A DNA stretch of 64,000 nucleotides. Source: Acarospora socialis (lineage: Eukaryota > Ascomycota > Lecanoromycetes > Acarosporales > Acarosporaceae). The stretch's first letter is position 1. Each line of letters opens with the position of its first letter. Position numbers and translations under genes: made by a program. This document shows, piece after piece, positions 10,981 through 19,400 of this stretch. Where the stretch lies: assembly GCA_025617375.2 (NCBI GenBank), contig JAMYGW020000016.1, positions 1 through 64,000 of the forward strand. Reading direction: 5' to 3'. The notes under the pieces were generated by a model that made no database searches, had not been told where the DNA came from, and saw only the letters and a list, made by a program, of their open reading frames with translations.

Positions 10981-13900
10981 TTGTTTTTTTTGTTATTATC
11001 TAACGCGTTAAATTCTAGAAGAGACAGGTCTATACTGTATTCTAGAATTACAATTTTAATATTAATTTCTTCTATTATACTAAATAAAAATGCTTTGTAT
11101 GCAAGCTTTTTAGATAAAGGTATAGGTTTGTATGGTGGTTTATTCCATTGTACAGCTATAACACAGAATTTTCATCTTTTCATCTTTCTTATTTCCGCGA
11201 TTATTCTGCAATTAACATCCTTTTATCCTAGGAAAGTTTATCTCAAAGAGATAGATGTCCAAAGTGTTTTTGATTTATTTTTTTCTAAGTTTATTTATTA
11301 TAAAACGAAAATTATAAACAAAATGGCAGAACAATTTAAAATAATGGAGTATTCTTTGATAATAATGTTCATAACAGTTGGAGCGGTTTTATTAATATCT
11401 ACTAGTGATCTCGTTTCAATTTTTTTATCTATAGAATTACAAAGTTATGGTCGTGCGCCGGGAGAGGCGTGTGCTGCGGAGGTATTTACACAAATGTTAT
11501 TTTGCGTAATACTATCGAATATATTTGGCCTTACTCTTTTAGAATGATATTCGCCACATATATTCACTCTATGTTTAGCTAATAAATTACATACTAGGAT
11601 AGCTGAATGTAAACGGATATCCCCAAAAAGACTGCGCCTTTTTGAGGTAAATCTTAGTGGGGATAGTCATGGACAGGATGACGAACTTGAGACGTATAGA
11701 GTGGCCAAACTTGGCCTGGAAGTCCTAAGCAGTTACCGCGGCAACTGAAAGGGTAAACTTAATGCTCTCACCGGTAGACCGTAGGATGATGGTTGCCAAC
11801 AGCCCTTTACTCACTTCAGTAAAAAAGACAAAAATGCGCAAGGTCCTGAAACTATCACTCTAAACGCCAGCACACAGCAACCCCGGGATCTAACCGCCTA
11901 TGGGTATAATTTATATCAAATGCGGGCACGGAGTTTCCATAGTAGTTGCAAAACGAAGGGAAACAGTCGTTAATCGTCACTTTTTGAGGCTAACGACTGT
12001 AACATTAAGGGTGCTGAGTAACTCAATCTTTTAAAACACAGTAAATCGTGTCCATCCTTTAGTTCGTGAGCCAACTCAGAAGTTAACAAATATTTAACAG
12101 GCGATTGTAAATATAATGGTCTTATTAACATTATCGCTAATCCCCTATTGTTGCAATTATGTTATCTAGAAATCAAAAGTAAACTTGGAAATATGTCTAA
12201 AGGTTCAAACAATATTACATTGGATGGAATAAATATTGACTGGTTTGAGAAACTAGCCCGAGAGCTAATAAGCGGTAAATTTGCTTTTTCTTTAGGCAGA
12301 AAAGTCCTTATCCCTAAATCAGGTAAAAAGGAATTAAGACCTCTCGGAGTAACTAGTCCTGGTTATAAGATTATCCAAAAGGCCTTAACGGTAATATTAG
12401 AAGCCATATGAAATATAACCTTGTCCAATAACTTTCATGGTTTTAGACCAAAGAAATCCTTGCACCAAGCACTATATCAATTATATAGAAATGGAGCCTA
12501 TTATAACTGGGTTATTCAGGGAGATATTTCCAAATGCTTTGATAAAATCCCACATTATACCTTTCTTTATCTGTTAAGTAGAAATATCATATGTGATAAA
12601 ACTATGCAACTTAACCGTAAAGTCCTAAGGATAGGATATAGAGATCCCATTTCGAAGAAACATGTTAGGTCAGAAGAGGGGACCCAGCAAAAAAGTATTC
12701 TTAGCCCGCTAGTTTCTAACAAAGTTTTCGATCAATTGGATAAGTATACTGTTGCGTATATAAATTCTTGACTTATAAACTATTTGATACAACTTTCTTA
12801 TAATTCGTTGGCAAAATGTTTAATCCTAAACCTATAATTATTCCTAGGCTTAGAAAGAGTCCTATGTTTGTTAATGATAAGTGTAAATTAGATAATATTG
12901 GGGCATCTAAACTTATTAAATTTCTAATTTCAAATTGCTCTAAAGGGCTTTTAGCAGAGATTTCTTGGTGTGAAAATTGATCTAAAGGGCTTTTAGCAGA
13001 AATTTCTTTGTCTGAAAATTTCACTATAAATATTGTGTGTGTGTTCATTTATTTAAATATTAAGGGAATAGATATTCGTTTGTTATTGAAAATTATTTTA
13101 CCAAATAATTTTCTTCGTTCTAAAATAATGGCTTATTTATAGGGAGGAAAATACTATTTTTATAGTCTATGTATGGATATCCTTAAAGTCAAATTTGAAA
13201 AAGTAAAAAGCTAAAAACAAGGCATACGATTCTATAACATCTAAAATACAAAATTTAAGAAACTACAATCCAAAATCTCCAGAAATAAAAAAAAATTAGC
13301 CGTTTTAATAAGAAAAATTCCTAGTCTAATCACAAACGATCCGAATTTCAAACGAATTATGTACATAAGATACACAGATGACTTTGTAATTCTAATTACG
13401 GGAACATCAAATTATGCTCACTTAATTAGGTATTCAGTCAAAAACATCCTTCATAACAACTGTGGACTGGAACTTAACATCGAAAAGAACATAATCTCTT
13501 CTACTAAAGATGGATTTAAGTTTTGAGGTGCATATTGTGTCAAACCGGTTTCAGTTAAGGGCACTCGTTTATTAAAAAATAAATTTGGTAATCCTAGCAA
13601 AAATAGAATGAGAATGAGAATTATGATTCAAGTTAAAGACCTCATTGAGAAATTAATTCTCAATAAGTATGTAATAAGGGATAAATTTGATCTACCGGTA
13701 CATACAGCCCGGAAAGACGTTGTCAATTTCGAACATCATGAAATAAGCACATTCTACAATAACAGGATAAAAGGACTTTTAAATTTCTATAGTTTTGCTC
13801 ATAATTTAACGAGTCTAAGATCAATCTTTATGTTTCTTAAATTATCATGCGCCCTTACATTAGCATTAAAATATAAGCTTAGAACTAAGAAACAAGTGTT

Positions 13901-16479: not shown

Positions 16480-19400
16480 ATTTCTCTTTGAACAGAACGA
16501 TGATTTTTATCTTCAAATGCAAAAGATATAGGGACATTATACCTTATGTTTGCCACATTTGCAGGACTTATAGGAACAGCCTTTTCTGTTTTAATACGAT
16601 TAGAATTATCTGGACCAGGAGTTCAATATATAGCTGACAATCAGTTATACAATAGTATAATAACTGCTCATGCCATCGTGATGATATTCTTTATGGTCAA
16701 ATACAATGCAAATAAGTTAAATGAAAATTTAAAGTTATAATCTGTTAATGCAACTATTGGTGATAACAACTTTGATGTAAAAATTGGTAAGGATAATAAC
16801 AGTTATAAGAGTAATAAAGACTTAAAACATAAATATGTTAAAGTTTTAGTGAAAGACCCTTATAACAACAGAGATATGATACTTAAACGAACTAAAAAAC
16901 AAAAAGGTGTTTATATCTGGTAAACTTTAGATGGTAAAAATATGTATGTTGGTCATTCTATTAATTTATACAATCGTATAAGTTCTTATTTTATGCGTTG
17001 TATACTTAAAACTAAAGCACGTAGAGTTCTTAGACACTTAAATAAACACGGCTTCAGTGATATAAAGTTGATTATATACATTATGGATATTGAATCTAGT
17101 ACTGTTGCGTATATAAATTCTTGACTTATAAACTATTTGATACAACTTTCTTATAATTCGTTGGCAAAATGTTTAATCCTAAACCTATAATTATTCCTAG
17201 GCTTAGAAAGAGTCCTATGTTTGTTAATGATAAGTGTAAGTTAGATAATATTGGGGCATCTAAACTTATTAAATTTCAAATTGCTCTAAAGGGCTTTTAG
17301 CAGAGATTTCTTGGTGTGAAAATTGATCTAAAGGGCTTTTAGCAGAAATTTCTTTGTCTGAAAATTTCACCATAAATATTGTGTGTGTGTTCATTTATTT
17401 AAATATTAAGGGGAATAGAAATTACTTTGTTATTGAAAATTATTTTACCAAATAATTTTCTTCGTTCTAAAATAATGGCTTATTTATAGGGAGGAAAATA
17501 CTATTTTTATAGTCTATGTATAGATAAAGTAGTAGCTTTAGAGCAACACTTTATTGATACGTTAAAGCCAAACCTCAGTGTAGATTTAGTAGCAACTAGT
17601 TCTGGTTATCACGAGCCTATGGCTCAAGAAATACGACAAAGACTCTTTAAAGAAAGAGCAACTCCTGTTTACATTTATGATGATTAAACTCTTAATTTAT
17701 TGCACATATTTGAAACAAAAACACATATGTATAATTCAATAAAGATCCATCATAAAACTCTACAGGATTGTTTAGATTTAGGTAGTTTATATTTAGATTC
17801 TTTTTTCTTATCTATAGATTTGCTTGAAACTGTAAGTTGTTCACTTGTCAAAAAAGACCAAATAAAAGATTTAGTTAATGCTAAACGAAATATAAACTTA
17901 AACATCCTGCAGCCAAAGCTATACTTGCTGAATTTAAATATGACGCTAGTAAAAACTTAGAGTTTGATTCTTTAAATAGTTTAGCTAAACATCTTAAACG
18001 TGATCGTCAAGTAATTAGAGAGTACCTACAAGGAAGGAAATCTGGTTATTATCGAGGTAAATGAAAATTTACTTCCCAATCCCTTAAAGGGAATAAACAC
18101 GACATTTAACATATATAATTATTAAAAGGCATGGCCGGGGATGGTAGAAATACTATCCTTTATTTTCACTGTATGCTGGAATCCCTTTAGAGCCCTTAGA
18201 ACTTGTAATACAAGCTTTCTTTTATGAAAAGCGGTATGATACAGTGACATTTTAAGAGATTAGGCAATCAGCAGGAAACCAAAGATATTTGGGCTTTTTA
18301 AGCGTTAAACACTTATATCAAGTAGGTTCCTCAGAGACTACACGTGAAATACCTTATTAAATAACACATTTAAAGGTAAATATATAGTCCGGTCCTTAAT
18401 GAAAATTAAGGGAGCCGCATGCCGGCAATGATAGGAGGTTTTGGTAAAATTTATAAAAGTAATCTGAAAAGATATTTTAGTGTGAAAAAAAACTCTAATA
18501 AAGAAACAGAATTAAGATCAAAAATAGGGGCTTATTTAGCAGGACTTATCGAAGCAGACGGATCAATTGCTGTTCATAATATAGATTCTAAAGCTAAAAA
18601 ATATCGTCCTAAAATATTGGTAGTATTTAGTTTACCTGATAAACCCTTAGCAGATAAACTAGCTTCTATTACTAACACAGGGGCTGTATATACTAGAAGT
18701 AATGCAGGTCATGTTATATGACAAATCCAAAAAAATGATGAAGTAATTAAAATAATAGAGATTATTAATGGATATATGCGTACACCTAAAATAGAAGCAT
18801 TACATAGAGCTATAAATTGATATAATCAGTTCGATGGTCGTAATATTATATCTTTGGGTTTAGACAATTCTCCTATAAATAGTAATGCATGGCTAGCTGG
18901 TTTTACGGACGGAGATGGTAACTTTAGTATTAACTTAATAGATAGAAAAAAGAGAGGAATAATAACTACTAAAAGAATACAAGCTTTCTTTCGTATTGAA
19001 TTAAGACAAAATTATCATCGTGATGTTTCAACAGATTTAGGAGGAATTAGTTATTTTGCTCTATTGAATAAAATCGCAGCATATTTAGGTGTAAATTTAT
19101 TATCAAGAACTAGAGAACAAAAAGACAAAATATATTACGCTTTTATAGTTATATCACATAGTATAGCTAGTCATAAAAAAGTTATAGAATATTTCGATAA
19201 TTTTCCTTTATATTCTTCTAAGTATATGGCTTATAAAGATTGATCTAACCTAGTGAGAAAAATTATTTCACGTGAAGGTAAGCCTATAACTCAAGAAAAT
19301 ATATTAGAGGTTAAAAAAATTAAAGCCCAATTCAATAGTAAACGTACATCATTTGATTATTCACACTTAAATAACTTAGTCTAATTGCATACAGCATCTT

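What the first reader, a model, noticed from the sequence alone, without database searches (positions are those of the whole stretch)
12743..17525. A roughly 420-bp segment cut from atp6 behaves like a transposable element with TA target duplication
Copies A (12749-13171) and B (17102-17518) have identical ends and interrupt two unrelated intron genes (a group II reverse transcriptase and a GIY-YIG endonuclease). In both, removing the segment plus one TA rejoins the host frame exactly (DKY|MDI and ESS|IDK). The cargo is the 5' flank and first third of atp6 on the opposite strand. No transposase or clear terminal inverted repeats are visible, so it would be a non-autonomous element of unknown mechanism in a mitochondrion.
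Basis: partly seen in the sequence, partly recalled or inferred. Interest (0 to 1): 0.85.

Follow-up and report, generated by a model that had tools for sequence, protein, structure and literature searches.

The report
Mobile atp6 relic fragment in mitochondrion
In this fungal mitochondrial genome a roughly 420-base scrap of a dead atp6 gene sits, with the same two ends, inside two unrelated intron genes, so it seems to have moved as a unit, although how it moved is not shown and other scraps of the same gene are scattered with different ends.

Summary
A (12747-13173) and B (17100-17520) are 97% identical, share both ends, and interrupt a group II intron reverse transcriptase and a GIY-YIG gene. 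Removing 425 and 419 bases rejoins both frames, and a relative (L003) aligns without a gap across both sites. New here: (1) the cargo is from a decayed atp6. A relic (E, 46.1-46.7 kb), placed 5' of rns as atp6 is in L002, shares a frame-breaking shortening with A, B and C. (2) Two more partial copies exist: C (38831-38989) carries 38 bases of A's host and stops at an internal site near which D (26331-26493) starts. (3) The TA 'duplication' cannot be told from plain insertion beside TA. C's ends resemble those of A/B (random-breakpoint P = 6e-5, score chosen afterwards), which favours recognised ends. Against: no terminal inverted repeats, no transposase found, other sharp-ended duplications without such ends, and right flanks matching in 7 of 8 bases, which could have guided copying from A to B. 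Best reading: end-defined unit mobility, like short fragment insertions of other fungal mtDNAs; confidence 0.5.

The parts
12747..13173 (-). Copy A: TA + 423-base core + TA. Core is antisense atp6-like 5' coding (12749-13048, from a possible ATG) and leader (13049-13171). Strand given is that of the atp6 sense.
17100..17520 (-). Copy B: TA + 417-base core + TA, same ends as A; lacks 7 bases present in A, D and E
12022..12746 (+). Host of A, 5' part: group II intron reverse transcriptase (Pfam RVT_1) in a nad2 intron
   Evidence: group II intron match at 14313-14374
13174..14018 (+). Host of A, 3' part: rest of RVT_1 plus type II intron maturase; two in-frame TAA
16861..17099 (+). Host of B, 5' part: GIY-YIG endonuclease reading frame in a cox1 intron, one in-frame TAA
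17521..17687 (+). Host of B, 3' part of the GIY-YIG frame up to a TAA; similarity to L003 goes on beyond it
38831..38989 (-). Copy C: 38 bases of A's host reverse transcriptase plus the left 121 bases of the element (counted from the TA); flanked TA|CTAGTT...AGTCCTATG|TA; ends where a duplicate of the cox2 intron end/exon 2 begins
26331..26493 (-). Copy D: internal part of the element, starting at AGAGTCCTATG, within 12 bases of where C stops; single 42-base unit; more diverged
46127..46660 (+). E: atp6 relic with stops, frameshift and missing middle, 5' of rns as atp6 is in L002
12932..13015 (.). Two tandem 42-base units in A
17278..17361 (.). The same two tandem 42-base units in B
13088..13113 (.). 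Perfect 11-base hairpin with 4-base loop in A; as exact sequence found in the window only here and in B
17435..17460 (.). The same hairpin in B

Best explanation
A and B are two insertions of one defined DNA unit made from the leader and first third of a decayed atp6 gene. The unit first landed in the nad2-intron reverse transcriptase, and a copy of it then entered the cox1-intron GIY-YIG gene 4.35 kb away. It enters beside or within a TA, leaving TA at both sides. The ends, TA|CTGTTG... and ...AGTCTATG|TA, appear to be what is recognised or cut; C would be a related event using look-alike ends. It works like the short non-autonomous fragment insertions of other fungal mtDNAs, moved in trans by an unidentified activity (a mitochondrial endonuclease plus repair, or an imported recombinase). 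Shown: two insertions, shared ends, restored frames, a relative without the inserts, pseudogene source. Inferred: order A then B, recognition of ends, TA duplication, the enzyme.
For: Same two ends in unrelated hosts; both frames restored, L003 ungapped at both sites. C carries A's host flank, and at site 12797 C and E share one base while A and B share another, so the insertion in the reverse transcriptase seems older than the A/B split, and B holds the insert without A's flank (one site only, and L002 has a third base there). C's terminal sequences resemble those of A/B, P = 6e-5 under random breakpoints and flanks. AGTC(C)TATGTA occurs 4 times on both strands: the right ends of A, B and C, and 57015-57024, which I read as a tRNA-like stem. 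Short insertions that vary between isolates, some multi-copy and some inside endonuclease genes, are in print for Annulohypoxylon stygium (PMC6140425; section 13 and part 1 of 2 of section 16 read).
Against: No terminal inverted repeat: 8 of 30 end bases match, and 89% of 1113 TA-to-TA segments of the same length do as well. No transposase seen in the 42 of 64 ORFs scanned. Fold of the unit is not unusual (z 0.18 and -1.18). Only two full copies. D and E have other ends. Other sharp-ended duplications in the window (cox1 and nad2/nad3 pieces at 55.9-56.9 kb, cox2 exon piece) do not have these ends, so fragments also scatter without any such unit. C's right junction is also the left end of the cox2 duplicate, so C may be one link in a chain of joins; or its right end may be the ordinary one after an internal deletion between AGTCCTATG and AGTCTATG. 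The C test was devised after seeing the ends.
Confidence: 0.5

Rival explanations
1. B was copied from A by break repair (template switching or ectopic gene conversion). The broken GIY-YIG gene primed at a TA of A's left junction and left A at TATGGATA, which matches its own TATAGATA in 7 of 8 bases. No element and no recognised ends; A itself arose as a similar patch.
For: The genome has several sharp-ended duplications. At B's right junction GTAT is shared with A's flank and GATA follows after one mismatch. A and B lie 4.35 kb apart in the same orientation.
Against: On the left only TA is shared, so exact reuse of A's left insertion boundary is a coincidence. Similarity of the two empty sites as a whole is not above chance (observed score 8; 10% of 1492 random pairs reach it). 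It does not predict C's matching ends.
Confidence: 0.33
2. RNA route: an antisense-inserted cDNA of the 5' part of an atp6-relic transcript, made by a group II or retroplasmid reverse transcriptase, integrated twice; the constant leader end would be the RNA 5' end.
For: The unit runs from leader into coding sequence in sense; a reverse transcriptase is encoded nearby; A, B, C and D all lie antisense to E and to the genes found.
Against: Both ends are shared, so a single cDNA end would have to recur; the leader's native context is not in the window; the nearby reverse transcriptase is itself interrupted.
Confidence: 0.12
3. Assembly or library artefact joining mitochondrial fragments.
For: The window could not be checked against reads, and no whole genome is held.
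Against: A and B differ by 7 substitutions and two indels; junctions keep host frames; nad2 and nad3 frames between them are open.
Confidence: 0.05

Closest known systems
Short fragment insertions of Annulohypoxylon stygium mtDNA (PMC6140425; outline, section 13, part 1 of 2 of section 16 and passages read)
   Same: Defined short insertions, some multi-copy, found in introns and inside LAGLIDADG and GIY-YIG regions; 31 of 44 hold at least one small inverted repeat by the paper's counts, as this unit does; no enzyme named in what I read.
   Different: 12-106 bp there, 419-425 here; origin from a gene not mentioned in what I read; there supported by presence/absence between isolates, not available here.
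Truncated extra atp6 copies of Pezizomycotina: Sclerotinia borealis and Botryotinia fuckeliana (PMC4162613, passages), Pseudocercospora fijiensis (PMC7999263, passages), Shiraia (PMC4366305 and PMC11881002, passages)
   Same: Partial or second copies of atp6 in mitogenomes, in Shiraia on different strands and present in two of five strains.
   Different: In the passages I saw: no shared ends at two sites, no antisense insertion inside intron ORFs, no TA flanks.
Mobile GC clusters of yeast mtDNA and double-hairpin elements of Allomyces (as described in PMC2800124, passages; details of GC-cluster target sites are recalled, not checked)
   Same: Small mitochondrial elements held to be mobile, without an enzyme of their own.
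   Different: Those are hairpin-forming and, in yeast, G+C-rich; this unit is an A+T-rich gene fragment without unusual folding.
Endonuclease-linked atp6 C-terminal replacements of Allomyces and Phlebia radiata (PMC4019555, passages)
   Same: Pieces of atp6 moved around together with homing endonuclease genes.
   Different: Those are 3' parts beside an endonuclease gene; here the 5' part, antisense, inside the endonuclease gene.

Membership tests
DNA transposon / MITE with TA target duplication (Tc1/mariner-like; features recalled) | TA at both sides of the insertion | tested here: met
   but equivalent registers allow insertion without duplication
DNA transposon / MITE with TA target duplication (Tc1/mariner-like; features recalled) | terminal inverted repeats | tested here: not met
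   8 of 30 end bases match, leading match 3; 89% and 29% of 1113 TA-to-TA segments do as well
DNA transposon / MITE with TA target duplication (Tc1/mariner-like; features recalled) | transposase in cis or in trans | tested here: inconclusive
   none among 42 of 64 listed ORFs; nucleus and rest of mtDNA not available
Short fragment insertion of fungal mtDNA (A. stygium type) | presence/absence between isolates | not testable with these tools
   no second isolate; only a distant relative without the inserts
Short fragment insertion of fungal mtDNA (A. stygium type) | more than one copy with defined ends (some fragments) | tested here: met
   A and B
Short fragment insertion of fungal mtDNA (A. 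stygium type) | small inverted repeat (most, not all, fragments) | tested here: met
   11-base perfect stem, 4-base loop, internal, not at the ends
Short fragment insertion of fungal mtDNA (A. stygium type) | length 12-106 bp | tested here: not met
   425 and 419 bases; so not filed as a member, only as working alike
Group I or group II intron (twintron) | intron boundary bases and core structure | tested here: not met
   registers give TACTG..CTATG, ACTG..CTATGT or CTG..CTATGTA, not the recalled intron consensus; no Rfam intron hit inside (which also listed no group I intron anywhere, so weak); fold ordinary
Plain segmental duplication | ends unrelated between copies | tested here: not met
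   A and B share both ends; C and D do have other ends

The most novel reading that the evidence does not exclude
A mitochondrial DNA transposition activity that recognises defined ends (TA|CT..., ...AGTC(C)TATG|TA), inserts at TA, and has captured and spread a piece of a dead respiratory gene; C would be a second, differently sized unit mobilised by look-alike ends.
Probability: 0.22. Interest if true: 0.8.

Novelty: new variant of a known kind. Interest (0 to 1): 0.45.

Why it matters
Truncated gene copies are reported from several fungal mitochondrial genomes, and in the papers I opened their origin is put down to duplication, recombination or endonuclease invasion without a worked-out mechanism. 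A gene fragment that moves as a unit with fixed ends would offer a concrete, testable mechanism, and the right-end motif gives something to search for in published mitogenomes.

Tried and rejected
Intron (twintron) reading: ends and fold do not fit. Longer shared duplication around A and B: none. Resemblance between the two empty sites: not above chance. Inverted-repeat ends: chance level. The fourth AGTCTATGTA (57015-57024, minus strand) I read as a tRNA-like stem and not another end; ARAGORN and Rfam list no tRNA at that place. Other copies in public collections: the exact left end was not found in viral contigs, nor the exact right end in genome contigs; each collection was tried with one end only. 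A 60-aa piece of copy A found no relative in viral contigs. In plasmids the matches are atp6 genes of two records that hold fungal mitochondrial genes, plus weak short matches with E 0.01-0.8 there and one at 0.047 in the contig of L003, taken as chance. Relatives by nad2 or by the reverse transcriptase in viral contigs: none. GIY-YIG gave L003-L005 in viral contigs and none in genome contigs. The full atp6 search in viral contigs gave L019, an atp6 with a partial repeat, not close to the window. Literature on atp6 copies and mobile mitochondrial elements: seven searches; in their listings and in the passages opened I saw no report of this unit, which is no proof that none exists.

Full report
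What the window is. Genes found are the 3' part of nad4, nad1, nad2 with a group II intron, nad3, cox1 (16-36 kb, many introns), cox2, cox3, an atp6 relic, rns and tRNAs; those found are on the + strand, but only + strand ORFs were scanned. With table 4 they read like a fungal mitochondrion. Core genes match L002, a 26-kb record deposited as a Proteus plasmid that holds ascomycete-like mitochondrial proteins; the stretches atp6-rns-trnY and trnK to trnS run in the same order as in L002, while other genes (such as cox3) lie elsewhere. Queries for nad5 and nad6 gave no hit and no intact atp6 lies in the window, so it is part of a larger genome. No whole genome is held.

The observation. A and B align end to end at 96.8%, with 7 substitutions in 426 columns and 8 gap columns. 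Left flanks differ at once; right flanks share TAT, differ, then share GATA. Removing 425 bases (A) or 419 (B) leaves DKYMDI and ESSIDK. Both lengths are 2 mod 3, so the fit of frames is informative. L003 has a GIY-YIG protein with MDEKSSLEQVV where the window has MDIESS|IDKVV, and a reverse transcriptase with LDEYVEEL where the window has LDKY|MDIL, both ungapped. L003's GIY-YIG match is broken at other places and its reverse transcriptase is only 34% identical, so these show the empty site at protein level, not in a close relative. The TA duplication is not unique: A can be cut in three and B in four equivalent ways.

What the cargo is. In sense the unit starts in a leader with an 11-base hairpin, passes a possible ATG and a 42-base tandem repeat, and runs through atp6 up to the ATV codons. 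The window also holds a degenerate atp6, E, about 3 kb 5' of rns; L002 has its atp6 directly 5' of rns. Between the NYNK and QE codons A, B, C and E are 4 bases shorter than L019 and L001, and 1 shorter than L002, which itself lacks one codon there; a TAA stands in frame. By my reading of the codons the loss is at WSIS; the aligner puts the gap slightly upstream. Either way the frame is broken in all four. The scattered copies therefore descend from a broken lineage, not from a working gene.

Other copies. C holds 38 bases of A's host reverse transcriptase and the first 121 bases of the unit; D holds an inner stretch with a single 42-base unit. In the shared 121 bases C differs from A and B at 2 sites each and from E at 3. 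At 12797 A and B share a base, C and E another, and L002 a third. The simplest order is E-type source, insertion into the reverse transcriptase, C split off, then B. This rests on one site and is weak.

Are the ends recognised? C begins TA|CTAGTT and ends AGTCCTATG|TA; A and B begin TA|CTGTTG and end AGTCTATG|TA. An exact enumeration over 200 left breakpoints upstream of A and 407 right breakpoints inside it, with flanking dinucleotides weighted by window frequency, gives P = 0.012 (left), 3.3e-4 (right) and 6e-5 for the summed score. The score was designed after seeing the ends. AGTC(C)TATGTA is present four times in 64 kb on both strands, three of them these right ends; the fourth lies in what I read as a tRNA-like stem. 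D's left break lies on the same AGAGTCCTATG. One reading is an endonuclease that cuts there; another is that C lost its interior between the two similar motifs; a third is that C is a link in a chain of joins, since its right junction is also the left end of the cox2 duplicate.

Against an element. End inverted repeats are at chance level, folding is ordinary, 42 of 64 listed ORFs show no transposase, and other duplications have sharp ends without this signature. A and B are close together and their right flanks match in 7 of 8 bases, as copying guided by short homology would give; the whole-site comparison is not significant.

Known background. Truncated atp6 copies are reported for S. borealis and B. 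fuckeliana (PMC4162613), for P. fijiensis with mention of Shiraia (PMC7999263), and for Shiraia itself, with an extra atp6 in two of five strains (PMC4366305, PMC11881002); passages only were read. Short insertions, some multi-copy, within introns and endonuclease genes are reported for A. stygium (PMC6140425). The present case differs in size, in origin and in the pair of fixed ends in two genes.

Verdict. Observation confirmed, interpretation partly supported. I put 0.5 on end-defined unit mobility by an unknown activity, 0.33 on repair-type copying from A to B, 0.12 on an RNA route, 0.05 on artefact.

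Noticed in passing
NZ_CP053901.1 (L002/L006), NZ_CP110134.1 (L001), NZ_CP110133.1: Records deposited as bacterial plasmids (Proteus mirabilis pJPM35-3; Peribacillus frigoritolerans) hold fungal-type mitochondrial genes: cox1-3, nad and atp6 in the first, atp6 exon-like pieces in the second, a cox3 match in the third.
   Followed up: partly
46127-46660: The atp6 5' of rns is a relic with TAA where L002 has conserved serines (LHL*LTN, RNV*LGLRL) and a missing middle; a working atp6 must lie outside the window or be lost from mtDNA.
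   Followed up: partly
55910-56178 and 56476-56863: Extra copies of cox1 exon 1 with the start of its intron and of the nad2 end/nad3, about 96% identical to 16464-16732 and 15410-15799, in reversed order; the second is followed at once, outside the copied piece, by TACATAGA, the reverse of the element's right-end motif.
   Followed up: partly
38989-39450: A second copy of the cox2 intron end and first codons of exon 2 is fused in frame to an ORF of unknown family (148 aa in all), upstream of the real exon 2.
   Followed up: no
837, 6436, 35961, 37124: GGATCCCTAG in repeated 60-90 base families that look like group I intron ends (that label is recalled).
   Followed up: no
57806-57877 and 58522-58593: Two similar tRNAs (84%), one with anticodon CCA and one with TCA (called SeC by ARAGORN, more likely Trp reading TGA).
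   Followed up: no
45296-46072: Repeat-rich Ser/Pro/Gln ORF of 259 aa without Pfam match just upstream of the atp6 relic.
   Followed up: no
L003, L019: IMG/VR 'viral' contigs that look like fungal mitochondria: L003 carries a group II reverse transcriptase and GIY-YIG pieces, L019 an atp6 with a partial repeat.
   Followed up: partly
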